Shown here one piece after another: positions 51,600 to 64,000 of a stretch of DNA of 64,000 bases; the first letter of the stretch is position 1; every line of letters begins with the position of its first letter. Source of the stretch: Halisarca cf. caerulea. Its lineage: Eukaryota; Porifera; Demospongiae; Chondrillida; Halisarcidae. Location: the NCBI GenBank assembly GCA_963170055.1, contig CAUJGJ010000087.1:1322601-1386600 (forward strand), written 5' to 3'. The notes beneath the pieces are model-generated. The model was not told where the DNA came from. It was given only the letters and a program-made list of their open reading frames with translations, and did not search any database. The translations under genes were made by a program, and so were the position numbers.

Positions 51600-51944
51600 C
51601 TCTAAAAATTGCATATACAGTTTTTAACTCGAATTACTTCTTCCCTTACAACAAAACAAAATTTGTGAACTGTTGAGGCCTCTTCCTTGAGCATTTCATG
51701 TTTTTTTGAGTTCGATTGACTGACCTTAATGCTGCATTCAACGCGTGGGTTAATTATGATTTATTAATACTGTAACAACATCTACATCAACTCCAAGGGG
51801 GGCAGGGGTAGGGGGTGAGTGTCCCCCCGGTAGGTATGTACACAGAAGTATACTGAGTTTTCAGAAATACATATGACACCAATACTGAATGTCAAAATAA
51901 ACAAAAATTAACTCTCTCTCTTTCTCTCTTTGTGTGTGAGGGCT

Positions 51945-51945
<1 letters not shown>
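51600..51945. other. Transition between array and transposon-rich region
   Basis: AT-rich single-copy-looking sequence with G-runs at 51,796-51,826 (GGGGGGCAGGGGTAGGGGG) and a pyrimidine-rich stretch at 51,912-51,930. I see no gene or repeat family in it. Confidence 0.5.
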
Positions 51946-51987
<42 letters not shown>

Positions 51988-52031
51988 GTGGGTGTGTGGG
52001 TGTGTGGGTGTGTGTGGGTGTGTGTGGGTGT
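51946..52031 (+). repeat. (TG)n/(GGTGTGT)n microsatellite
   Basis: TG dinucleotides passing into GGTGTGTG repeats, directly abutting the LINE fragment. Confidence 0.9.
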
Positions 52032-52930
52032 ATAGCGTTGCCAGAGAGACACTCAGGATGGCACCTGGAGGATGGAGTATTGAGTACACCAATACAGAGG
52101 GACTATTCTTGTCATACAGAAAGAGGATACCCTGTACAACAGACATCCAAAACATCCAGTACGCTGATGACCTCACCCTGGTTACAGAATCTACCAACGA
52201 GCTGTAGACCATGGTGAGTGCACTGGACAGAGCATGCACGCGATGGGGCATGATTATCAATACTACCAAGACAAAGACAATGACTGCTGGCAAGGATGAT
52301 GAAAATGATGCGTCAATCAATTTGCGAGGGAACCCTTTAGAAGCCGTGGAGCTCTTCTCCTATGTAGGGAGTGAAGTGGGGAAGAATGCCAGAATAGGTG
52401 GTGATGTGGGAACCAGACTGGAGAAGGTCTCCAGAGTGTACCAGAAGTGGAGGAAAGAGGTCTTTCGGAGCAGAAGTGTCAGCAAGAGAACCAAGGTGCA
52501 TGTCTTGAGAGTGATGGTGATGCCTGTGCTCCTTTATGGAGCAGAGACATGGGTTGTCACACAACAGGAGCTCAGGAAACTTCATGCTTTCCAAATGAAG
52601 TGCCTGCGAGATATTGTTGGGGTGACACTATGGGACAGGAGGAGAAATGCTGACATCTTGGAAGAAACTGGTAAACTACCTGTAAAGTACGTACAGCTGC
52701 GCCGTAAGCAGCTGCAGTGGTTCGGTCACCTCCAAAGAATTCCAGAAAGCCGGCCACAGAAGCAGGTATTGAGATGCTGACCATATGGAAGGAAGCGTAA
52801 ACCTAGAGGAACATATTGCAACGCTGGGTAGACCTCATTCACAAGGACCTGTCCAACATTTCCCAATGGAGCGAACATGTGAAGGACAGGTCTCAATGGC
52901 GATCCAGTATTCACCAGCTGTGTTTCGCAG
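52032..52930 (+). pseudogene. LINE reverse transcriptase, C-terminal fragment
   Basis: Encodes the end of a non-LTR retrotransposon reverse transcriptase. The palm motif YADD appears in [12 protein letters not shown] (about 52,158-52,193), followed by an in-frame TAG (52,206-52,208). A long frame (52,211-52,780) then holds the family's thumb and connector signatures: LFSYVGSEV, VLLYGAETWVV, and QLRRKQLQWFGHLQRIPESR. Beyond 52,780 the frame shifts, but RKPRGTYCN- and WVDLIHKDLSNISQWSEH-like words continue to about 52,930. The endonuclease and the N-terminal half of the RT are missing, so it is 5'-truncated and inactive. TG microsatellites flank both sides. The clade (CR1- or jockey-like) cannot be fixed by eye. 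Confidence 0.85.
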
Positions 52931-53110: not shown

Positions 53111-53392
53111 CACGTGCATACATGTACAAATTATGCAACCGCCTTGAAATCATGCTATAGCTACGCACTTACAATATGCACCAACACAAAGTGAAAAAGA
53201 GACTGTGGAAGACAAATGTAGGTTTTGCAAGCTAAGTAAAGTACTATTATTACGAAAAGAAACATCAACTGGCATAAATTTCAAGTCTGCATAACACTGT
53301 AATATTAAAACATACATATGATTATAGCAAACAAAATGAAGATGACAATAAAACAACAATTTTCCTACTCAGCAAGTCAAGAAATCACTCAC

Positions 53393-53689
53393 CTGCAGAC
53401 ACAGCAGTCATTCCCTGAACAGCACCACTGACCAATTCAATACACTGAACAACTCCATTGTCTGCCTCAGTAAATCCAGTGATAGTAATGTTAGAGGTGA
53501 GAAAGTCACCTGTGTCAGTATTAATGATCCTGGGATTGGTGTTGGCTGCTACCATTCCACTGACCGACCCAGCATTTATCCCATTCAATCCAGTGATATT
53601 CCACCCAGCTGCTGCACCAGTTACACTACAACTGAATGTCTGTTGACTCCCACAATCCAGAAAGAGAGGACCACTTGGAGTAAGAGTGC
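53393..53689 (-). CDS. Ig-like exon of the leftward receptor gene
   Basis: A 297-bp exon with acceptor TTTGTAG before 53,689 and donor GTGAGT after 53,393, both phase 1. It encodes one Ig-like domain: B-strand Cys in TFSCSV, core Trp in AGWNITG, and an F-strand ending ADNGVVQC. NIT sequons at two places suggest N-glycosylation, expected for an extracellular domain. It is a near-perfect inverted copy of 60,728-61,024 (7 of 297 bases differ). Its upstream partner is the signal-peptide exon at 59,991-59,919, 6.2 kb away across an intron full of transposons. I find no following exon to the left, where the next sequence is LINE and then the repeat array, so the gene may be truncated or have very distant exons. 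Confidence 0.8.
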
Positions 53690-54073
53690 CTACAAATAAA
53701 TCAATAAACAATATTAAGGAAAAGTATCGTACAGGATCACAATAAATACAATAAATAAATAGTTTACAAATGTTAGCGGGTACTATTTTTATCGTTTTTC
53801 AATGACCAATATTTAGTGGGTATCTATTTTAGCGATTTGATAGAATATTTGTACCAGATCTGTAGTTAGCGATTTTGGAAATGTTACCTTCTTTTCCAAT
53901 TCTTTTTTAAATCACCATTTTCAATCTTTACTTCTTTAAGCTCATGCCACATGTTCTCGATCGGATTTAGATCAGGCGATTCTGCTGGCGTCCTCCACCA
54001 TTCAATATCCATTTCCTTATAGAAATCTTGTGCCATTTTAGAACAGTGCTTGGGATCGTTGTCTTGCACTAAG

Positions 54074-54853
54074 CAGTGTAGATTATAGCAGTCGGTCACC
54101 GGACATTTACCGGCAGTCTTGGTCACATGACAGGTTATGAACCTGTCTAACGGACAAAATGTCCAGCGCATGAGAGCTACTAGTCTACAAATGAACCTAG
54201 CTAAAAAAAGACTAAGGGACAACTTTCAGCAGCCACTGTTCAGAGGTGGTAAATTAATTTTGGCAAAGACCAACAAACGCTGGCGTGGTTGTGATTCGCG
54301 AGGAAAAATACCATACGTTGCAAGTTTCGTCGGAGCCGGTGCGACTGGTATGCCCATATCCATACCAATTTTTGGTCAAAAGTAAGTTAATTTGCTAGCT
54401 AAACTATATTCACGAAGAAAATACCTTGCTCAATTATCTAAAATCCAGCTTCTGACCTCTGAAACTGTCAAACAATCGCCATGCTGTTTTCCGTCATTGT
54501 GTTGTGACACAATGAGCATCATATTGCAACTACGTACATAAGTCCATTGCCTAGTGAAATACTCCAAATAATACCTCTATAATATTATTTAGCTGTAAAA
54601 AGCAGTTTTCTATGGGATATAGCATCTTATCTCCCCTTTCCAGGGCAAATGGCAATAACTGTTGCTTAGAATCATAAACTTACTTTATATGTACGTACAT
54701 ACCTGTGGCCCCTTAATATAAACTATGAGTAGCAAATAAGTTACAATAATACTACATTTAAATGTTTAAATGACTTGTCCGGCTATGACAGGTGAAAACT
54801 ACACCTGTCTGACATATTGTCAGGATTACCTCCTGAGGTTATAATCTGCACTG
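54074..54853. mobile_element. 780-bp hAT-like element inside the Tc1 gene
   Basis: Ends CAGTGTAGATTATA and, from the other side, CAGTGCAGATTATA; target duplication CTAAG (54,069-54,073, 54,854-54,858). Each end also bears a perfect internal palindrome: GACAGGTT-ATG-AACCTGTC at 54,129-54,147 and GACAGGTG-N7-CACCTGTC at 54,787-54,809. CAGTG ends with a 5-bp duplication suggest a hAT-family element. A plus-strand frame at 54,137-54,385 (contains RRGCDSR-like basic residues and ends just before a GTAAGT) is of unknown meaning. Confidence 0.75.
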
Positions 54854-55539
54854 CTAAGCGACAACCGTCAGGATAAACTTCCCTGATGAAAGGTACCAAT
54901 GTTTCTTCGAGAATGGTTGTGAACAGGGGAGCGTTCATTCTTCCTTCGAAGATGCATACTCCTGTCCTTCCTCAAACGCTAATTCCTGCCCAAACATGAA
55001 CTTTGACTGGGTGCTTTGCACGCGGCTTGTACCTGGGTTTTCGCCCCGTGTGAAGTTGTTCTTCTATGGTTTTCCAATTGTACTGTTGTCTCGTCCATAA
55101 AAATGAGATGGTCTAAGACTAAGTTGATATTGTGAACGTTTTCTTTTGCCCAGGCCAGACGCTTATCAACATTCGCTTCCCGTACCATTTGACAACACTT
55201 GGTGCCTTTCAATGTCCAGCCCAACTCTTGTTTCCAGCGATGGACATTGCTGATTGACGCCTTAAGACCTTGCTCCTCAACCTTTGACTTCAAATCGTCC
55301 AATGAAATTTTGTCATCCTTTGTTATCTCCCTGTCGATGAAGTCAAGGACAGTATGCGTCTTGGTGGGCTTTCTGCCAGATCCCGCTTTGCTAGTAATGG
55401 TGCCTGTATCTTTAAATTTCTTGAGGAAATATGATATTCTGGGCTTCCTAACGTGGTTGCCTTCTGATACTAGTTGATTCACAATCTGAGAAAAAGATCT
55501 GCCTACTCGGTGTAGATAGAGAATTCGCTGCTTCACGTA

Positions 55540-56010
55540 CAGTGAAACCTGCCCAATCCGACACCTCTCTAAACCGACAAATGCCTAAACCGACACTGAA
55601 TTCGAGGCACCGATAGTTTTTCAATACAAAATCACCTGCCTAATCCGACAAATTCCTAATCCGAAAACCGACATCCATTGTGGAGTCCCTAGAATAAAAT
55701 TAACCTGTACAATCCGACAATCGTTGCAAATTGGCTGGAGTTTCTCCTTCTATTTTTCGCCGTACGTGTTATGCTTGCATGCGGACGCCATATTGCTTCA
55801 TTACGTAATGATTCAATAACTAACAAACACTGTGACGCAATAATCGGACTCAGTTGTAATAACTAACAAAACACTGATGCAATAATCGGACTCAGTTGTA
55901 ATAACGAATCAAAATTCTAACCCTAACCCTAACCCTCTGGAATCCGACAACCTCCTAATCAGACATTTTTTTCCAGTCCCATTGAGTGTCGGATTAGAGA
56001 GGTTTCACTG
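55540..56010. mobile_element. 471-bp MITE inside the Tc1 gene, TA duplication
   Basis: The left end CAGTGAAACCTGCCCAATCC and the right end GGATTAGAGAGGTTTCACTG are inverted repeats. TA flanks at 55,538-55,539 and 56,011-56,012. The word ATCCGACA is repeated along both arms. It contains a 45-bp direct duplication (about 55,815-55,905) and a short CCCTAA run (55,917-55,936). It interrupts codon 22 of the transposase frame. Confidence 0.9.
55917..55936. repeat. Telomere-like (CCCTAA)3 within a MITE
   Basis: CTAACCC repeated three times, internal to the MITE at 55,540-56,010. Too short to be a telomere. Confidence 0.8.
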
Positions 56011-56533
56011 TAGTTGGAATAAACCATAATGTTCGTTTGCACTCTCCAATAAACTGAGAGATAATAGTTCGACATCTGCTTGCGCATTATGACGCTTCCA
56101 CTATCGTGTGATTGATCAGAACGAACGAAGGTTGAACGAAGGCTTGAATGAACCCAAACGAACGCTGAATGAAGATGTAATTAACGAACTGACGTCGTTA
56201 AAATTTCTATGGGGAGTACTGTACATCCATACTTAACTTTTTCACGTCCATAAGCCAATTTAGTGGCTTATGATAACAAGTATACTTCCCGTCCGCAAGG
56301 TGCGAAAGTTGTGCAATCGCTATGTAACTTATATGGTTAGATAGAGCATTAAAAGAATAGTTCACAGGCCAAATTTTAAGCAGATATACTGTTGCAGAAC
56401 GACATACTAATACAAAGAGAAAAGTATTAAAAACGCAATTGAATATACTTACATGCAATTATCCAAATAGTATAAAAGTCTAAAAACAAAAATGGCGACT
56501 GCAGAATTAGTTGTGTCTGTACGTTACTATTTC

Positions 56534-58494
56534 TTAGCTATATTCTGGCGAGTGTGGTATATTCTGAAGCAAGGAGTGGGACAAAGAGGTATGGGTACCT
56601 CAGTGCAGCAGTCACTACAACAATAGATGGTCCTCCTTCGTTCGGTGCACACGTGGCATTGCAGCTTGTCGACATTCTTCGATGGGAAGTGTCTTCCTTG
56701 GAGGCAGGCGGCAGGTGGTGCCTGAGACACGGCAGGCCTCTTCCTAGAGTTGTGACAGGAGATGAGATGCTGTGCTACGGCGAGAAAAAACTCAATATGG
56801 GTGAGTTTCTTCGTGTGGGGAGTAGTGTTGTAGATGGTATATGCACTAGTGATTGTCGTGTCCAATAAGTAGTGTATCTGCATCCACCACTTGTTTGACT
56901 TCCTGCTACATGAGTAGGCTCTTCGTAGTACATCAAATGTGTCTACTCCACCCATGAAGCGATTGTAAAGACGAATTGCTTCAGGGCAGGGAATTTGAGC
57001 TCTTGTGCCATCGCTTGTTGGGGTCCACTGTATTGTTATTGAGAGAAACTGCTTTGTTGTCTTTTCAAAGAAGACACTGAATGCCATCTACCACAGTAGA
57101 TTTGGTATCACCTCTAGCCATCTCCTTACTCAGCTGCTGCTCTTTCTTGAATTCCACAGGCCACCCTCTTCTACTTACCATCATAGTGCCAATCATGTAG
57201 GTGCCTTTTTCGGCCAATTTCTTGCACATATCCAGACTACTGAAAAAATTCTCCATGTAGACATGGTGGTTTCTCAGGTACAGGGGCTCCATCAAATTCT
57301 GCACTACCCTCAAGGAGAGTGAATCCTCTACACTGTGGTTGGTGTCATTGGCTGCGCCTGTGTACATGTTGAAGTTCTACACATAGCCATTGGTTGCATC
57401 ACAAATGCACCATATCTTGTAGCCAAGTTTGATAGGCTTTAAAGGCATGTACTGCTTCATGGAGCTTCGGCCTTTGAAAAGAATCATGGCTTTGTCTACT
57501 GAGAGCTGTTGCTGCGATTAATAGCAAATTTGGCTGTTGTTACGAATACGAACATCAAAGAGAATTATCTAAGTGCTACTAATTAGCGGCTATATTGTTT
57601 ACAAAAGCGATTGTTGCTGGACCCACGTTTCTTCCCTTCCACCCCCGGCGCTTGTACGTATGTGGGTCACAGCTGGCTGGACTAAGGCCTAACCTTGTAC
57701 AGCTGGTCGAACTGTTGTGATGATTGGTCTGGGGCAATGGAGTTGTCGTTTGGGTAGAGATGGCTCAACAGTGATCAAAACTTGTGCCTAGATATGCCCG
57801 AAGTGATGCCTAGGGTATTCAGTAGAGGATTAGTATTCCAGTAGTTATACATAGATGGTAGGCGTACTATACCCATAGCCAACTGTATACTTATCAATGA
57901 CTGTATTTCTTTCTCACTTGTTGTTACCCATTCGGCAGTTTGCTTCTGCTGTGCATAGAGGTTGGATTGATCAGCAATGTGCTGAAAGGTGTCGTCACCC
58001 CAGATCTTGCAGAAAAACTCATAGGGATGACTGCTTCCATGAAGTGTGTCGTGGATGATTGGGGTTGGGCCTGGGATAAACTGAAATGGATCAGTTGCAG
58101 AACTGCTTGACGAAGACACTGGCATGGTATGGCTGGCACTGGATTGCAGTAAGGTGGGAGGCTCAGAAGCTGTGCATGTGCTGGTTTGAGGATGTGAACC
58201 AACTTAACTGTCAATCTCTTGAGGTGTGTTGCTTTCCTGCATGTTCGTGATGCCACTATTGACTGATGTATTCTGTTGTGTAGGCAATGGAGTGTGTGAT
58301 ATCTCGTTAATTTGGTCTTCAACATGTGTCTCCAGCTCAAACCTATCAAGTGTATCCTCAGATGCAGATTCGCAGCGGACTTATACCAATGTTCCTAGCG
58401 CTATTCGGTGGGTGACCTCGAAGGGGTTTCTTTCCGTTTGCTTGCGATATGAAGGATTTAGGAAATTTGCACGTACTTGGCTACGAGGCGCCAT
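56534..58494 (-). pseudogene. piggyBac-type transposase, decayed
   Basis: Read leftwards from ATG at 58,494: MAPRSQVRANFLNPSYRKQ, an acidic N-terminus with in-frame TAA at 58,383-58,381 and 58,206-58,204. The DDE_Tnp_1_7 domain begins about 58,090 (FQFIPGPTPII, AMGIVRLPSMYNYWNTNPLL). After SRHKF there is a stop, then SIAPDQSSQQFDQLYKVRP. The first catalytic Asp is in LSVDKAMILFKGR (57,494-57,496). The second should be Asp in a V-DN-F-S context but reads HHVYMENFFSS, so Asp is replaced by Glu (57,251-57,253). The third is intact in GGVDTFDVLRRAYS (56,941-56,943), after a frameshift near 57,080. A cysteine-rich C-terminal finger (CHVCTERRRTIYCCSDC) ends the frame at 56,527. Not functional. It lies in the first intron of the leftward receptor gene. 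Confidence 0.9.
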
Positions 58495-58935
58495 ATTTAG
58501 TTTGCGAACGAAAGTGGACAATTATACAGCTTTTCCTTTACAATCCTTTGTCCGGTAACTCCTCCTAGGAAAAGAAAGCGATCACTTTATGGCCACCATA
58601 GATTAATGACATGACGATTGGAAAGTGTTATTAATTATATAGTGGAAAGCGGTCTCTGCGCAAAATGTGAGCGGCTATAACCTGCCTTGGGGAGATCGGC
58701 CAATGTGTGCAGTATACAGAATTTTTTGGAGAATATACGATACGCTGCCCTGACACGCATGTGTGGCAAAACTTTAATTTTACAAAATAACTCATTCATA
58801 AACACAATAGAAAACACACATAGTCAATGAAAATTGGTCTATAACACCAATGCAACAAGCAACTAGTATGTGTGGTACAATACTCTAATTCTATCCTTAT
58901 ACAGCAAATGATAGTGGAATGTGGTGCAGTGTGTG

Positions 58936-58937
<2 letters not shown>

Positions 58938-58990
<53 letters not shown>
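58938..58990 (+). repeat. (TG)n microsatellite
   Basis: About 50 bp of TG in the large intron of the leftward gene. Confidence 0.95.
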
Positions 58991-58993
<3 letters not shown>

Positions 58994-59226
58994 GTGTGAG
59001 TGCACATGCGGTACTTAAAAGCAGCTCTGAAGCAATTCTGAATACAAGAATTGCACTTTATGTAACTACCATACACTTGCCATAAGAGTTACACCCATGT
59101 GACTACCTATAACTAGCTTACTACAAGCTTATTCTTGATAATATAAACACAATACTAAAATCAATTGATTAATTTACTTGATACAACCTCTTTACTTGAT
59201 AGAAGGGTTGCACCTGCCACCCAAAA

Positions 59227-59262
59227 TAGGGGGAAGGCGGCCAAAAGCCGCCTTCACCCCTA
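59227..59262. other. Strong stem-loop in intron
   Basis: TAGGGG-GAAGGCGGC-CAAAA-GCCGCCTTC-A-CCCCTA: 15 paired bases with one bulge and a 5-nt loop. Too short for a microRNA precursor of usual animal length; could be a foldback relic. No function is assigned. Confidence 0.6.
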
Positions 59263-59584
59263 GTGATTCTAATGCAGCTCAACAGCTGTTACATATAACC
59301 AAAACAGCTAAAAATTTCTAAAAGCCGCCACCTACCTAAAGATGAAACCAACTAAAAAATTCCACTGACCCAATAATTGATAAGTATCCTTGGGTGCTTC
59401 ACGCCGTCACAGAACAATAAGAATTTCATCAGTCTTGTGTCTCGTTTAACCAAATCACAAAACAATTCAGGCTTATTTGTACAAATAATAGGTCTGTTCA
59501 GTCTGCAGACTCCTTTCCATGGTCCGTAGACGCAGGCAGTCCACAAAATAGAAAGTACCAGCTTGCCCCCTGAATGCAGGCCTT

Positions 59585-59722
59585 ACTGTAATCCGACACC
59601 TTGATAATCTCTCTTTAATACGACTATGCTACACAAAGAGTTTAAGAAGTGTGGGGAAAGTCACTCTATAATCCAACACTTATTTCAGGTCCCACTGAGT
59701 GTTGGATTAGAGAGAATTTACG
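59585..59722. mobile_element. Relic MITE related to 55,540-56,010
   Basis: TTACTGTAATCCGACACC at the left and GTGTTGGATTAGAGAG at the right are decayed inverted repeats of the same ATCCGACA family; the termini are eroded and no clear target duplication remains. Confidence 0.5.
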
Positions 59723-59918
59723 TAGAGATTACAAATCAAACAGAGATACAAATCAAAATACAACGGGCAGGTAACATACGTACCCTAATGACTACATGAT
59801 TATCTACGTTAGTACGTACGTATGTTCCTACGCGAGGAAAGACGCTGTCTGATCATGGAACGTGGGAAATACAACAAGACTAAAGAGTAAATTCCCCAAA
59901 CTACAACCATTGTATTAC

Positions 59919-59991
59919 CTTTTACTTCAGAAACAACAAACAGTACCAAATAAACTAAAGAAAATCCGAGCACATGTCTTCTTTCCATCAT
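59919..59991 (-). CDS. Signal-peptide exon of the leftward receptor gene
   Basis: ATG at 59,991 opens a 73-bp exon encoding MMERRHVLGFSLVYLVLF, then VVSEVK: a basic n-region followed by a hydrophobic core and a polar end, as in a secretory signal peptide. It ends in phase 1 at AAAG|GTAATA, which joins in frame to the phase-1 Ig exon at 53,689. Its layout matches the rightward gene's first exon (basic RR, FS.VY..L, V.SEV before the splice), so the two are paralogues. Transcription would start from the 262-bp region shared with the rightward gene. The intron behind it is 6.2 kb, against 398 bp in its partner, because of transposon insertions. Confidence 0.7.
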
Positions 59992-60253
59992 CTTCTTGTA
60001 TCGGGAAGGTAAGCTCTCTTTGGCGACTTTGACCGTCCAAAATATGTACGGTCATATGCTAGTCCACCCGCATAAATTACTTCTCCACTCCGTGGCCACA
60101 AGACCTTCCCCCTCCAGCTTATTCACAAAATAATTATAAGAAATTCGGCGTAACCAATATTAAAAAATTGAGCAGTAAATTTACCGACTAGACCGTCTAT
60201 TTTCGACGGTCAAAGACGACAAGCCGAGAGCTTACTGTTCTCGGCATGCGAAG
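59992..60253. promoter_or_regulatory. Shared upstream region of two divergent genes, palindromic
   Basis: 262 bp separates the two start codons. Its outer parts mirror each other: GTAAGCTCTC (60,009-60,018) against GAGAGCTTAC (60,226-60,235), and TTTGACCGTC (60,028-60,037) against GACGGTCAAA (60,205-60,214). Each arm also contains a small dyad, GACCGTC-N7-GACGGTC at 60,191-60,211 and GACCGT-N11-ACGGTC at 60,031-60,053. The layout shows the gene pair arose by inverted duplication and suggests a bidirectional promoter; the conserved dyad is a candidate factor-binding site. No clear TATA element. Confidence 0.6.
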
Positions 60254-60329
60254 ATGATGATGGATAGGAGACCTATGCTCAAATTTTCTTCAGTGTACTT
60301 CTTACTTTGTGTTATTTCTGAAGTAATAG
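60254..60329 (+). CDS. Signal-peptide exon of the rightward receptor gene
   Basis: Three ATG codons in a row (60,254-60,262) open a 76-bp exon: MMMDRRPMLKFSSVYFLLCV, then ISEVI. Basic residues followed by a hydrophobic stretch fit a secretory signal peptide. It ends in phase 1 at ATAG|GTAACA and joins after a 398-bp intron to the Ig exon at 60,728. Which ATG is used is uncertain; the second or third aligns best with the MM start of the divergent partner at 59,991. Confidence 0.75.
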
Positions 60330-60727
60330 GTAACAACGGTTTATAGTTTGATGCTTTCGCTGTAGATTTTCCAGGTTCCATTAGTCCGTTTCCCGCTCGG
60401 TGAAGCCCGGGCCGGGGCTTCACGTAGAAACGTCCGTGGATCTTGGAAAGTTACTTACCCGTTGTATGATTTTGTAACTTGGTGATAATTGGGTTGTTCT
60501 TTCTTTGCGTGTCGAGTAGGATTAGGTTCATGCTTATGAGACCATAGTCTATGCCGGCAGAGTATATACAAGAATTCCAATTTGCCATAGACAGTTATAT
60601 TGGCTTTCATCATATCTACCAAGGACTATAAGCTACTCCCTCCTCCTTGCCATGGACATTTTGTTTTGTTATGGTCCTGTACTATACTATATATTGATAA
60701 GTTAGCTTAATATTGATTTATTTGTAG

Positions 60728-61024
60728 GCACTCTTACTCCAAGTGGTCCTCTCTTTCTGGATTGTGGGAGTCAACAGACATTTACTTGTAGTGTAATAGG
60801 TTCAGCAGCTGGGTGGAATATCACTGGATTGAGTGGGATAATTGCTGGGTCGGTCAGTGGAATGGTAGCAGCCAACACCAATCCCAGGATCATTAATACT
60901 GACACAGGTGACTTTCTCACCTCTAACATTACTATCACTGGATTTACTGAGGCAGACAATGGAGTTGTTCAGTGTATTGAATTGGTCAGTGGTGCTGTTC
61001 AGGGAATGACTGCTGTGTCTGCAG
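60728..61024 (+). CDS. Ig-like exon of the rightward receptor gene
   Basis: 297 bp between acceptor TTTGTAG and donor GTGAGT, phase 1 on both sides, coding for a single extracellular Ig-like domain: TFTCSV (B-strand Cys), AGWNITG (core Trp), and TEADNGVVQC (F-strand, with the D.G..C pattern). An extra Cys at about residue 13 and two NIT sequons are present. Residues 20, 24, 26, 36 and 39 differ from the leftward paralogue; everything else is identical. A 1-1 phase exon can be duplicated or shuffled without breaking frame. It follows the signal peptide directly and precedes the FN3 exons, so the Ig domain would be the outermost part of the mature protein. Confidence 0.85.
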
Positions 61025-61232
61025 GTGAGTGATTTCTTGACTTTTTGAGTAGGTAAATAATTATTGTAATGGTTTCATTAATGTCTTGAAATTATTTGCT
61101 GTAATCCTGCATGTTTAACCTTGCAATGGTACACGGAGTTAAAATTTATGGCATTTGATGCTTCTTCTACAATTACAGTACTCTTAGACTGCTAAACATA
61201 CATCATCTTATTTAATATTTATTTTGTCATGT

Positions 61233-61385
<153 letters not shown>

Positions 61386-61761
61386 CAAAGGGGGTCTGGG
61401 GTCATACTCTTCCATAAAATTTTGAATTTATACCCCAAGAGGTGCACTTTCAGACCCTTTTGTGGTTCTCAAATGATATGATAAGATGACCAGATTTCTG
61501 GTGCTAGCTGATCTGGCACACGTACGTGTATGAGGGTTCTATCCAGGATTACCGGATTTACTTCAAATTTGTGGGGAGAAGTATCAGTTATAACTCAGTT
61601 TATATCTGCTACATGCCAATAGTTTTATATGTACTAGGTATCCTAATATCTATAAAAAAACACATGCAGTGCAGTGATGTAAGTGGGGGTACATATATAG
61701 CTAGGGGGTCTGGGAGTATGCTTCCCCAGGGAAAATTTGAGTTTTCAGCTTATATAAGGTG

Positions 61762-61800
61762 GTATCTGCTAGCATTAGCTCAGTGGTGAAGTCGAACGCT
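61762..61800 (+). repeat. tRNA-derived head (A-box like), not a tRNA gene
   Basis: TTAGCTCAGTGGTGAAGTCG resembles the D-arm and A-box of a tRNA gene and is followed by AACGCTTGCCATTC. No B-box or closing acceptor stem is visible downstream, so it is more likely a SINE remnant than a tRNA. Confidence 0.3.
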
Positions 61801-62170
61801 TGCCATTCATCTCACTTCTGTCAAATGCTTCTGATTGGTGCTATAATTGTAGTACTGTAACAGTAACTGTAACTGTAATAAGGTACAGTTTCGCTGTCAC
61901 ACATGCAGCTCATTATTATATCAACTGACAGTAAGTATCAAGCAGGCATCACATGCAAGTCCTACCAAAACACAACATGTTACTACCAGTTAGAGTAGTC
62001 TGTTAGGTCTACCTCTTAAGTTAGACACTCACAGCGCATGGTCAGAATATTCATCATACCACAATGTCATATCATTTATCTGTAATAGCTATTATAGCCC
62101 CCCCACGTGCCTTCTATAATGTTCAATCTGTATCTGTAACGATGGAATGTCGTGATGTTCATCTCAATAG

Positions 62171-62461
62171 GTACACCTTCCTGCCCAAGGTCATTTAATT
62201 TAACAACTTTTAGGAGACTCAGTGTTGATTTTACCAGTGCTATAGCCTGGTCACAACCCACAGCCTATCCAGTCACATCCACTACAGTCACCTACTGTCC
62301 TACATCATCACCAAACTGTGGGGATAGTGTGACTTGTACCAGTCCATGTACTATCAGTGGACTTGATCCCTGTGTGAACTACAGTGTTACAGTTACTCCA
62401 TCTAACAATTGTGGAAGTGCTACTGAATGTTCTGCAAACATTGTAACTATCCCCGCTGAAG
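62171..62461 (+). CDS. Fibronectin-III exon of the rightward receptor gene
   Basis: A 291-bp phase 1-1 exon: acceptor CTCAATAG before 62,171, donor GAAG|GTCAGT. It encodes one FN3 domain of 97 residues: B-strand Trp in SAIAWSQPTAYPVTS, and the F-strand Tyr motif in DPCVNYSVTVTPSNNCGSA. At least eight cysteines (CPRSF, YCPTSSPNC, VTCTSPC, DPCV, NNC, TEC) imply extra disulfides, a style frequent in sponge FN3 repeats but unusual for vertebrate FN3. It would be extracellular, following the Ig domain. No transmembrane or cytoplasmic part lies inside the window, so receptor type (kinase, phosphatase, adhesion GPCR or simple adhesion protein) cannot be decided. Confidence 0.85.
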
Positions 62462-62699
62462 GTCAGTGCAGCTACATTTTCATTGATGAACGCAGGTAGG
62501 TTATGTGCACATCGAGTAGCTGAGGGGCATTTTTGTGGCTTCACTCTATGTAATCAATTTGCATCTAATTATCGAGCTGTGATCAGGTGCAGTTTGCATG
62601 GCTATTCACGATGCATTTTGACATCTAGCAAGCAAAGTTGAATTTGTGCACATGTAAGTCTCAAACATCTCCAGTTCTTCCTTTTGTTTGAATTTTTGT

Positions 62700-63340
62700 A
62701 CTCATTTTGTTCCCTTTCGCCCAGTTTCGCTTCGAATTCGAACTATAAGGCTTTGCGTACGAAAATCCGTATACTTTTGCAACTATACGTTTACGAGTAA
62801 CAGTCACCTGACGTCCGTGTGAGTGTAGCTAGAAGAAGAGTATTTTGGATGACTAGTTTTCTTCTCGAAACGCGGAGATGAAAACCACCCACTGGTGCTT
62901 TGATAATTTACAAGCTTGTTAACAAAGGGTAAGACTAACTTTTCACCGTAGGGCCTCGTAAAAGCTTGTTTCTTTCGTTTTATGTACATGTGTTTGTGTA
63001 ATATTTCTCCTAAAATAACAGAAAAACCTGCACATCTCAGGAATGAAGTCGAATTTCTTGAGGCCCTACAGTGAAAAGTTAGCTACCGTTCCAAAGAACT
63101 CTTCGCTGTACATAGCTTGCCTCCACACAATCGTTGAGTATTCCGCGTTTTGGGATGAAGTTAAAATCATATACGTACATCAAATAAGTCCTAATTTTCT
63201 CCTTCAATCAATACATTGGTTCGAAGTAAACAAAGTAAAGAAATATGGGGTTAAAGTGTTCTAAAAGCTTACTTTTATCTTAATTTGTTTCTTCACATTA
63301 TCCACTCCGAAAGAAGAAAAAAAGGGGTGTATTTGTGACC
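62700..63340. repeat. Intronic inverted repeat, probable TIR-element relic
   Basis: CTAACTTTTCACCGTAGGGC (62,935-62,957) is repeated in reverse at 63,060-63,082 with one mismatch over 23 bp. Shorter mirrored words (AAACGCGGA at about 62,869 and TCCGCGTTTT at about 63,142) extend the symmetry. Each arm encodes an RPY.EKL-like peptide on opposite strands. I could not find clean outer ends. Confidence 0.45.
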
Positions 63341-63499
63341 AACTTTGCGGTGGCCATTTTGAAATTTCGCTTTATGTGCACATACACCTGCAAAAAGGTG
63401 ACATTTCGCAATCATCAATCTCAGCACAGCTAGTCCATCAACATCTCAGCACGATGATCATGAGTATTTATTTTCATATTTATTATCATAATGCAATTA

Positions 63500-63675
63500 C
63501 AGTGGAACCTGTCTATTGTGGTCACCATTGGGGCGAAATTTTTTGGCTGTTATAGACAGGTGGCTGCTTTAATGAGGTAGAATACCATACATTACTGCTG
63601 ATTCGGAGAAGAATTAGTGGCTGGTATGGAGAGGTGGCTGCATTACACAGTGACCACAATAGACAGGTTCCACTG
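63500..63675. mobile_element. 176-bp MITE with near-perfect ends, TA duplication
   Basis: Terminal inverted repeats CAGTGGAACCTGTCTATTGT / ACAATAGACAGGTTCCACTG match for about 26 bp without a mismatch; TA flanks at 63,498-63,499 and 63,676-63,677. GGTGGCTGC words recur inside each arm. Lies in the FN3-FN3 intron. A Tc1/mariner-type MITE, the best-preserved in the window. Confidence 0.92.
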
Positions 63676-63941
63676 TACTTGCAAAAAGGATGATAGTTTA
63701 TTTGAGTGCATATGCAGCTTTCAAATCCTATTATTGTTGCGTGGTATTGGCACTGTAACAGTAACTGTATCATTATACTATTTATCATGCAGGTACGTAT
63801 GTGTTTTGTTCATAGTCTGTAATCATCTGACATGCATGTAGCCTGATTTTGCTTACCTCACTATACACGTATATAGTTTCTGTTTTGGATATTTCAACAT
63901 ATTAAATGATCTGTAATACTCTAATATACTCCCTCCCTCAG

Positions 63942-64000
63942 GGGTTCCAGATTGTCCTAGTGATGTCAATGTTGTCGAAGGAGATCTTTGTGATAGTGTT
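63942..64000 (+). CDS. Second FN3 exon, cut by window end
   Basis: Acceptor CCCTCCCTCAG precedes 63,942, and the phase-1 frame reads GVPDCPSDVNVVEGDLCDSV before the window stops. The G-P-CPS..V start matches the opening of the first FN3 exon (GTPSCPRSFNL), so this is very probably another cysteine-containing FN3 domain of the same gene. Confidence 0.75.

What the first reader, a model, noticed from the sequence alone, without database searches (positions are those of the whole stretch)
53393..64000. Divergent pair of Ig/FN3 receptor genes from an inverted duplication
Two genes with matching signal-peptide exons and matching Ig exons run in opposite directions from a 262-bp palindromic gap. 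Splice sites and phases match in both. This is the only clear host gene content in the window and is a candidate lineage-specific surface recognition or adhesion family.
Basis: partly seen in the sequence, partly recalled or inferred. Interest (0 to 1): 0.8.

Follow-up and report, generated by a model that had tools for sequence, protein, structure and literature searches.

The report
Head-to-head immunoglobulin receptor gene pair
Two neighbouring genes that point away from each other appear to encode cell-surface receptors sharing almost the same ligand-binding domain, which looks like an invertebrate version of the paired immune receptors known from mammals.

Summary
At the reported coordinates two genes start back to back from a 262-bp gap, with matching signal-peptide and Ig exons, GT-AG sites and phase-1 junctions. 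They belong to a clustered family in a 194-Mb assembly: 62 Ig/FN3 exon matches (44 on this contig) and 33 tail-exon matches (23 on it). Intron-free assembled sequences support the splicing.

New point: the two Ig exons are 97.6% identical (Ks 0.03), while the signal exons differ at Ks 0.32 and adjoining introns diverge. A second head-to-head pair, some 37 kb further on, repeats this (98.4%, Ks 0.04). Of 78 pairs among 13 of 25 Ig exons, only these two exceed 90%. Between the pairs Ig Ks exceeds 1.1, whereas the FN3 exons beside them do not follow the pairs. This fits gene conversion keeping one binding domain matched across two different receptor genes, as in human SIGLEC11/SIGLEC16 (PMC5701461, passages).

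Not shown: opposite signalling, ligand, species. No cytoplasmic tail of either window gene could be read, and evidence that the partners' membrane exons differ is weak.

The parts
60254..60329 (+). Gene F exon 1: start codon and signal peptide (MMMDRRPMLKFSSVYFLLCVISEVI), donor GT, phase 1
   Evidence: same 26 residues (with the split Gly) joined to an Ig exon in P0008; signal peptide judged by eye
60728..61024 (+). Gene F exon 2: Ig domain, phase 1-1
62171..62461 (+). Gene F exon 3: fibronectin type III domain, phase 1-1
   Evidence: family HMM 124 bits; Pfam fn3 24.4 bits, just under its cut-off of 25
63942..64000 (+). Gene F exon 4 (start only): VPDCPSDVNVVEGDLCDSV, like the second FN3 exon of three paralogues; runs past the window
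59919..59991 (-). Gene R exon 1: start codon and signal peptide (MMERRHVLGFSLVYLVLFVVSEVK), donor GT, phase 1
   Evidence: signal peptide judged by eye
53393..53689 (-). Gene R exon 2: Ig domain, 7 of 297 bases different from F's; donor GT intact
59992..60253 (.). Shared divergent 5' region between the two start codons; arms partly inverted-repeat, centre unique
53346..53706 (.). Inverted-repeat arm holding R's Ig exon (partner 60711-61071)
60711..61071 (.). Inverted-repeat arm holding F's Ig exon (partner 53346-53706)
53884..55584 (-). Tc1-like transposase remnants (DDE_3 over cut-off; HTH_Tnp_Tc3_2 below cut-off) in R intron 1
56527..58203 (-). Transposase remnants (DDE_Tnp_1_7; the name piggyBac is recalled) in R intron 1

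Best explanation
The locus is a head-to-head pair of cell-surface receptor genes from a clustered Ig/FN3 receptor family. Shown: exon structure, family membership, an Ig fold, and near-identity of the two Ig exons against diverged signal exons and introns, repeated in a second head-to-head pair. Supported inference: gene conversion between the inverted Ig exons keeps the two partners' binding domain the same while the rest of the two genes diverges. Further inference, not shown for this pair: both partners are membrane receptors that bind the same ligand and pass it to different signals, so they work as paired receptors in recognition of self, symbionts or neighbours; tyrosine motifs in paralogue tails suggest phosphotyrosine signalling.
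For: Ig exons: Ks 0.028 in pair 1, 0.041 in pair 2; signal exons of pair 1 Ks 0.316; Ig between pairs Ks 1.15-1.36. Only the two head-to-head pairs exceed 90% among 78 comparisons of 13 Ig exons; next is 88.8%. FN3 exons beside the pairs: same side Ks 0.13-0.23, opposite sides 0.30-0.41. Trees: Ig exons join by pair with support 1.000; the FN3 exon 1289035 on R's side joins 1403338 of the other pair (0.954), and F's and 1438767's FN3 fall in another clade (0.904). All 7 Ig differences of pair 1 lie within 60 bases (P = 0.0003 under random placement). Ten paralogue tail loci read: 9 with NPxY or SPxY, 7 with two Yxx-hydrophobic motifs 5-9 residues apart, 2 with a strict ITAM pattern. Assembled spliced-looking sequences P0001, P0002, P0008.
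Against: F's exons after exon 4 could not be read, and R's link to FN3 and membrane exons across about 87 kb is inferred from order and strand. No tail of either window gene was seen. The membrane exons assigned to the two minus partners (1277.3k, 1401.3k) resemble each other only weakly: 10 of 2000 shuffles reach their score, a blastp of ORFs did not pair them, and one of them scores against the other tail class about as well relative to shuffles. FN3 type and tail type are not tied to strand in the family at large: minus-strand exons at 1232178, 1248446 and 1249549 lie in F's FN3 clade, and minus-strand tails at 1247857 and 1229316 match the plus-type tail. The tails of P0001 and P0002 match neither the strict nor the relaxed double-tyrosine pattern. 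12 of 25 Ig matches were not in the identity table. No convincing signal exon was found for the second pair. No expression, binding or population data.
Confidence: 0.55

Rival explanations
1. A plain recent inverted duplication of a whole gene start; the Ig exons are alike only because of strong constraint.
For: The inverted repeat is real and includes signal exons and the 5' gap.
Against: Signal exons Ks 0.316 (few sites: 15.5) against Ig Ks 0.028 between the same two genes; introns diverge a few dozen bases from the Ig exon; codons 39-98 have 0 of about 44 synonymous sites changed. A second pair repeats the pattern.
Confidence: 0.12
2. Inversion by recombination between the inverted Ig exons, flipping the block with both 5' regions and signal exons, so that signal exons swap partners.
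For: P0008 joins F's signal (26 of 26 residues) to R's Ig variant (99 of 99 including the last Gly), and its last 12 residues match an out-of-frame stretch of the FN3 exon at C83:1289035 on R's strand 12 of 12; F's own FN3 gives 10 of 12.
Against: F and R are identical over the first 55 bases of the Ig exon, so an assembler could join them falsely; the junction into FN3 is not at an AG as far as it can be inferred from the protein. FN3 exons not in hand were not compared. One cluster of assembled sequences only.
Confidence: 0.12
3. Adhesion molecules with no immune or recognition role.
For: Ig plus FN3 is common in adhesion proteins; top Foldseek hits of the weak P0002 model include PTPRK, PTP delta and NCAM2, and the top hit of the Ig model is myelin P0.
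Against: Large clustered family with tyrosine motifs; variation highest at FG and C' positions. None of this excludes adhesion.
Confidence: 0.15
4. Decayed locus (pseudogenes in a transposon-rich region) or an assembly artefact.
For: Transposon remnants in R intron 1; repeat array of about 51 kb beside R; some family copies carry stops; R's next family exon is 87 kb off.
Against: The window exons are open with intact splice sites; P0008 matches F's signal and R's Ig exactly; the signal regions of the two genes differ by 22%, so they are not one sequence placed twice.
Confidence: 0.1

Closest known systems
Human SIGLEC11/SIGLEC16 paired receptors (PMC5701461; abstract start and passages seen)
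   Same: Ig-superfamily receptors, head-to-head, about 9 kb apart there and about 7 kb between Ig exons here; gene conversion homogenises the exon of the ligand-binding domain.
   Different: There one partner is inhibitory and one activating; here tails of the pair are unseen. Here the near-identical tract is about one exon. No claim of common descent.
Hydractinia Alr family (passages in PMC12065747 and PMC11999971; the original PNAS paper not held)
   Same: [quoted passage not shown] ITAM/ITIM motifs in candidates.
   Different: Alr is tied to allorecognition; nothing of the kind is known here. Sequence relation not tested.
Botryllus fuhc Ig receptors with ITIM and hemITAM motifs (passages in PMC12065747)
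   Same: Invertebrate Ig receptors with tyrosine motifs; activating and inhibitory receptor pairs are proposed there.
   Different: Different animal group; no test of relatedness.
T-cell receptor V, NCAM Ig1 and shark IgNAR V domains (structures)
   Different: 13-25% identity; many Ig domains tie, so no subtype is settled.

Membership tests
Immunoglobulin superfamily | Ig beta-sandwich fold | tested here: met
   [not shown]
Immunoglobulin superfamily | Curated sequence-family match | tested here: inconclusive
   No Pfam Ig family at E <= 0.1 for F Ig-FN3; C20, W29 and C82 sit where canonical residues are expected (by eye; C82 invariant in the 6-sequence alignment)
Fibronectin type III | Pfam PF00041 over cut-off | tested here: inconclusive
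   F 24.4 bits against 25; paralogue 28.9; P0001, P0002, P0003 34.7, 25.3, 27.2
Type I membrane receptor | Signal peptide, single TM, cytoplasmic tail | tested here: inconclusive
   Read in P0002 and in paralogues, by eye and a predicted long helix; for the window genes only signal peptides were read
Paired immune receptors | Near-identical binding domain in two adjacent genes | tested here: met
   Ig exons 97.6% identical, Ks 0.028; that this domain binds the ligand is inferred
Paired immune receptors | Opposite signalling, same cells | not testable with these tools
   Needs expression and signalling assays; own tails unread
Hydractinia Alr-type allorecognition receptors | Allele-specific self recognition linked to the locus | not testable with these tools
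   Needs grafts or population data
ITAM receptors | YxxL/I-x6-8-YxxL/I in the tail | tested here: inconclusive
   2 of 10 paralogue tails read, neither P0001 nor P0002; F and R tails unread; pattern recalled
Receptor tyrosine kinases | Kinase domain in the gene | tested here: inconclusive
   No PF07714 match on contig C83 among the rows listed, but 127 of 948 candidates were scored and rows were cut

The most novel reading that the evidence does not exclude
An early-branching animal carries matched-specificity paired receptors: head-to-head genes with the same Ig binding domain and different signalling halves, kept matched by conversion or inversion between inverted Ig exons, within a roughly 1-Mb receptor cluster that is a candidate recognition complex. 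P0008 would then be a natural recombinant.
Probability: 0.25. Interest if true: 0.9.

Novelty: new variant of a known kind. Interest (0 to 1): 0.7.

Why it matters
Receptor pairs with matched binding domains are known from vertebrate immunity and proposed in the tunicate Botryllus. If an early animal uses the same layout, with conversion tied to head-to-head order, that solution arose independently or very early. It also gives a defined locus for recognition in such an animal, testable with long reads and cDNA.

Tried and rejected
No phage relative of window:60001-64000, no tRNA, no Rfam family at gathering score. A link to receptor kinases was considered and left open. A full-length protein of the R series was sought: 3 matches, covering 51, 43 and 24% of the query. 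Signal exons for the second head-to-head pair were looked for with a simple script and not found convincingly.

Full-text searches (papers holding the terms): sponge + immunoglobulin domain + fibronectin type III + ITAM, 0; 3 of 4 of Amphimedon queenslandica, immunoglobulin, gene family expansion, allorecognition, 26, 20 listed; Hydractinia + immunoglobulin superfamily + histocompatibility complex + ITAM, 3; sponge + allorecognition + aggregation factor + immunoglobulin + receptor, 5; Porifera + immunoreceptor tyrosine-based + Syk, 4; Siglec pair, 8; 4 of 5 demosponge receptor terms, 200, 15 listed; 4 of 5 V-set sponge terms, 25, 10 listed. In these listings I saw no report of this family; subscription papers are mostly not held, so this is no proof of absence. 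Passages seen in PMC12065747, PMC5701461, PMC11999971, PMC11876637 (nothing useful) and PMC4704026; the other papers listing and abstract start only.

Ks between Ig exons of different pairs is near saturation and means only 'deep'. The changes in the patch (5 nonsynonymous, 2 synonymous by the counting method) are no evidence of selection.
Full report
WHAT IS THERE. The window is G000:C83:1322601-1386600 of a 194-Mb assembly in 454 contigs. Gene F (+) has a signal exon at 60254-60329, an Ig exon at 60728-61024, an FN3 exon at 62171-62461 and the start of a further exon at 63942. Gene R (-) has a signal exon at 59991-59919 and an Ig exon at 53689-53393. The start codons are 262 bp apart. The outer parts of that gap are inverted copies at about 78%; the inner 137 bp are not. 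R's first intron is 6.2 kb and holds transposase remnants; F's is about 0.4 kb.

FAMILY. The F Ig-FN3 protein finds 62 exon matches in its own genome, 44 of them on C83 between 1.198 and 1.772 Mb, the rest on C1, C47, C124, C155, C226, C388 and C433. A paralogue tail exon finds 33 matches, 23 on C83 from 0.709 to 1.771 Mb. Both counts are lower bounds by the tool's own statement. Paralogues at C83:1.713 and 1.771 Mb read as Ig, FN3, then a transmembrane exon with a short tail. Assembled proteins from unnamed sources agree: 7, 46 and 3 matches at E <= 0.001 in three searches, overlapping. P0002 is a complete 343-residue signal-Ig-FN3-TM-tail protein from a 1415-base contig. P0001 runs continuously over three exons of the C226 gene at 83, 91 and 91% identity, so it looks spliced and comes from a paralogue or close relative. 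P0008 joins F's signal exon to an Ig exon without the intron. That these contigs derive from RNA is inferred from the missing introns.

THE PAIR EVOLVES ODDLY. Between F and R the Ig exons differ at 7 of 297 bases, all in codons 18-38, the rest being identical; the adjoining introns diverge within a few dozen bases. Ks is 0.028 for the Ig exons and 0.316, from few sites, for the signal exons of the same genes. A second head-to-head pair lies at C83:1420862 (-) and 1429669 (+). Its Ig exons differ at 5 of 318 bases, Ks 0.041, with divergent flanks; its signal exons were not found. I compared 13 Ig exons, those long enough and free of N among the loci in hand, out of 25 Ig-type matches. Of 78 pairs only these two exceed 90% identity; the next is 88.8%. 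Between the two pairs Ig Ks is 1.15-1.36. The FN3 exons beside the pairs behave otherwise: Ks 0.13-0.23 on the same side, 0.30-0.41 between sides. In trees of 13 Ig and 23 FN3 exons, Ig exons join by pair (support 1.000), while the FN3 exon at 1289035 on R's side joins 1403338 on the minus side of the other pair (0.954) and F's FN3 lies in another clade with 1438767 and C433 (0.904). That clade also holds minus-strand exons at 1232178, 1248446 and 1249549, so the types follow the sides of these two pairs, not strand in general. Assignment of FN3 exons to genes rests on order and strand.

TWO KINDS OF PARTNER? On the minus side of each pair the FN3 exons (1289035; 1408083 and 1403338) are followed by a second FN3 type (1283291; 1401563) and by an exon with a membrane-like stretch, then Cys-rich residues and a phase-1 donor (1277.3k; 1401.3k). 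Their likeness is weak: 10 of 2000 shuffles reach the alignment score, a blastp of ORFs did not pair them, and the 1401.3k exon scores against the other tail class with 2 of 2000 shuffles reaching it. F's exon 4 resembles the second FN3 exon of C433:8762, C83:1586016 and 1600953; in these three the next exon is a TM-tail exon with YDQV, YxxI and SPAY. So R and F may continue into different membrane parts. This is inference: F beyond the window could not be read, and R's next exon is some 87 kb off, past a repeat-rich stretch without a family exon. Other minus-strand genes (tails at 1247857, 1229316) carry the YDQV-type tail.

TAILS. Ten paralogue tail loci were read. Nine have NPxY or SPxY, seven have two Yxx-hydrophobic motifs 5 to 9 residues apart (looser than an ITAM), two the strict ITAM pattern, one of these in a copy that may be broken. 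P0001 and P0002 have NPxY but neither double motif. Motif definitions are recalled. Whether a Syk-like kinase exists in this genome was not tested.

P0008. Its signal is F's (26 of 26), its Ig is R's variant (99 of 99), and its last 12 residues equal an out-of-frame piece of the FN3 exon at C83:1289035 on R's strand, 12 of 12, against 10 of 12 for F's FN3; several other exons give 11. Read plainly this is F's start on R's gene, as inversion between the Ig exons would give; conversion or an allele would give part of it. But the first 55 bases of the two Ig exons are identical, so a false join by the assembler is possible, and the joint into FN3 does not seem to lie at an AG. I treat it as a lead.

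HOW IT LIKELY WORKS. Two receptors starting from one short 5' region share a binding domain that conversion keeps matched, while the rest differs. That is the layout of paired receptors. In SIGLEC11/SIGLEC16, head-to-head about 9 kb apart, conversion of the binding-domain exon keeps ligand preference alike (PMC5701461, passages). Among 11 Ig exons (one of each near-identical pair dropped) variation is highest at the FG and C' positions, as on a binding face; the F/R differences fall in the B, BC, CC' and C' region by the model's strands. Ligand, signal direction and cell type are unknown.

VERDICT. Observation confirmed, interpretation supported with refinements. Structure and family: about 0.9. 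Conversion within pairs: about 0.8. Paired signalling: about 0.3.

Noticed in passing
window 994-51602: Blocks of about 300 to 1900 bases recur at 75-92% identity in the same orientation, often at offsets near 12 and 32 kb: a long array of degenerate repeats between R's Ig exon and the FN3 exons on its strand.
   Followed up: partly
window 51912-52780 (+): ORFs read like the C-terminal part of a non-LTR reverse transcriptase (YADD-like stretch; recalled); Pfam gave no match for 52208-52780.
   Followed up: no
G000:C83:1420862-1421179 (-) and 1429669-1429986 (+): Second head-to-head Ig pair with 98.4% identical exons.
   Followed up: yes
P0008: Assembled sequence with F's signal, R's Ig variant and a piece of an FN3 exon of R's strand: recombinant or assembly chimera.
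   Followed up: partly
window 61025 (+) and 53392 (-): Reading through the donor of the Ig exon gives only GE and a stop in both genes, so intron retention would yield a secreted Ig protein.
   Followed up: no
L049 (C83:1705001-1715000): A long open tandem repeat (SEAGPQDHL and variants) lies downstream of the 1.713-Mb receptor gene.
   Followed up: no
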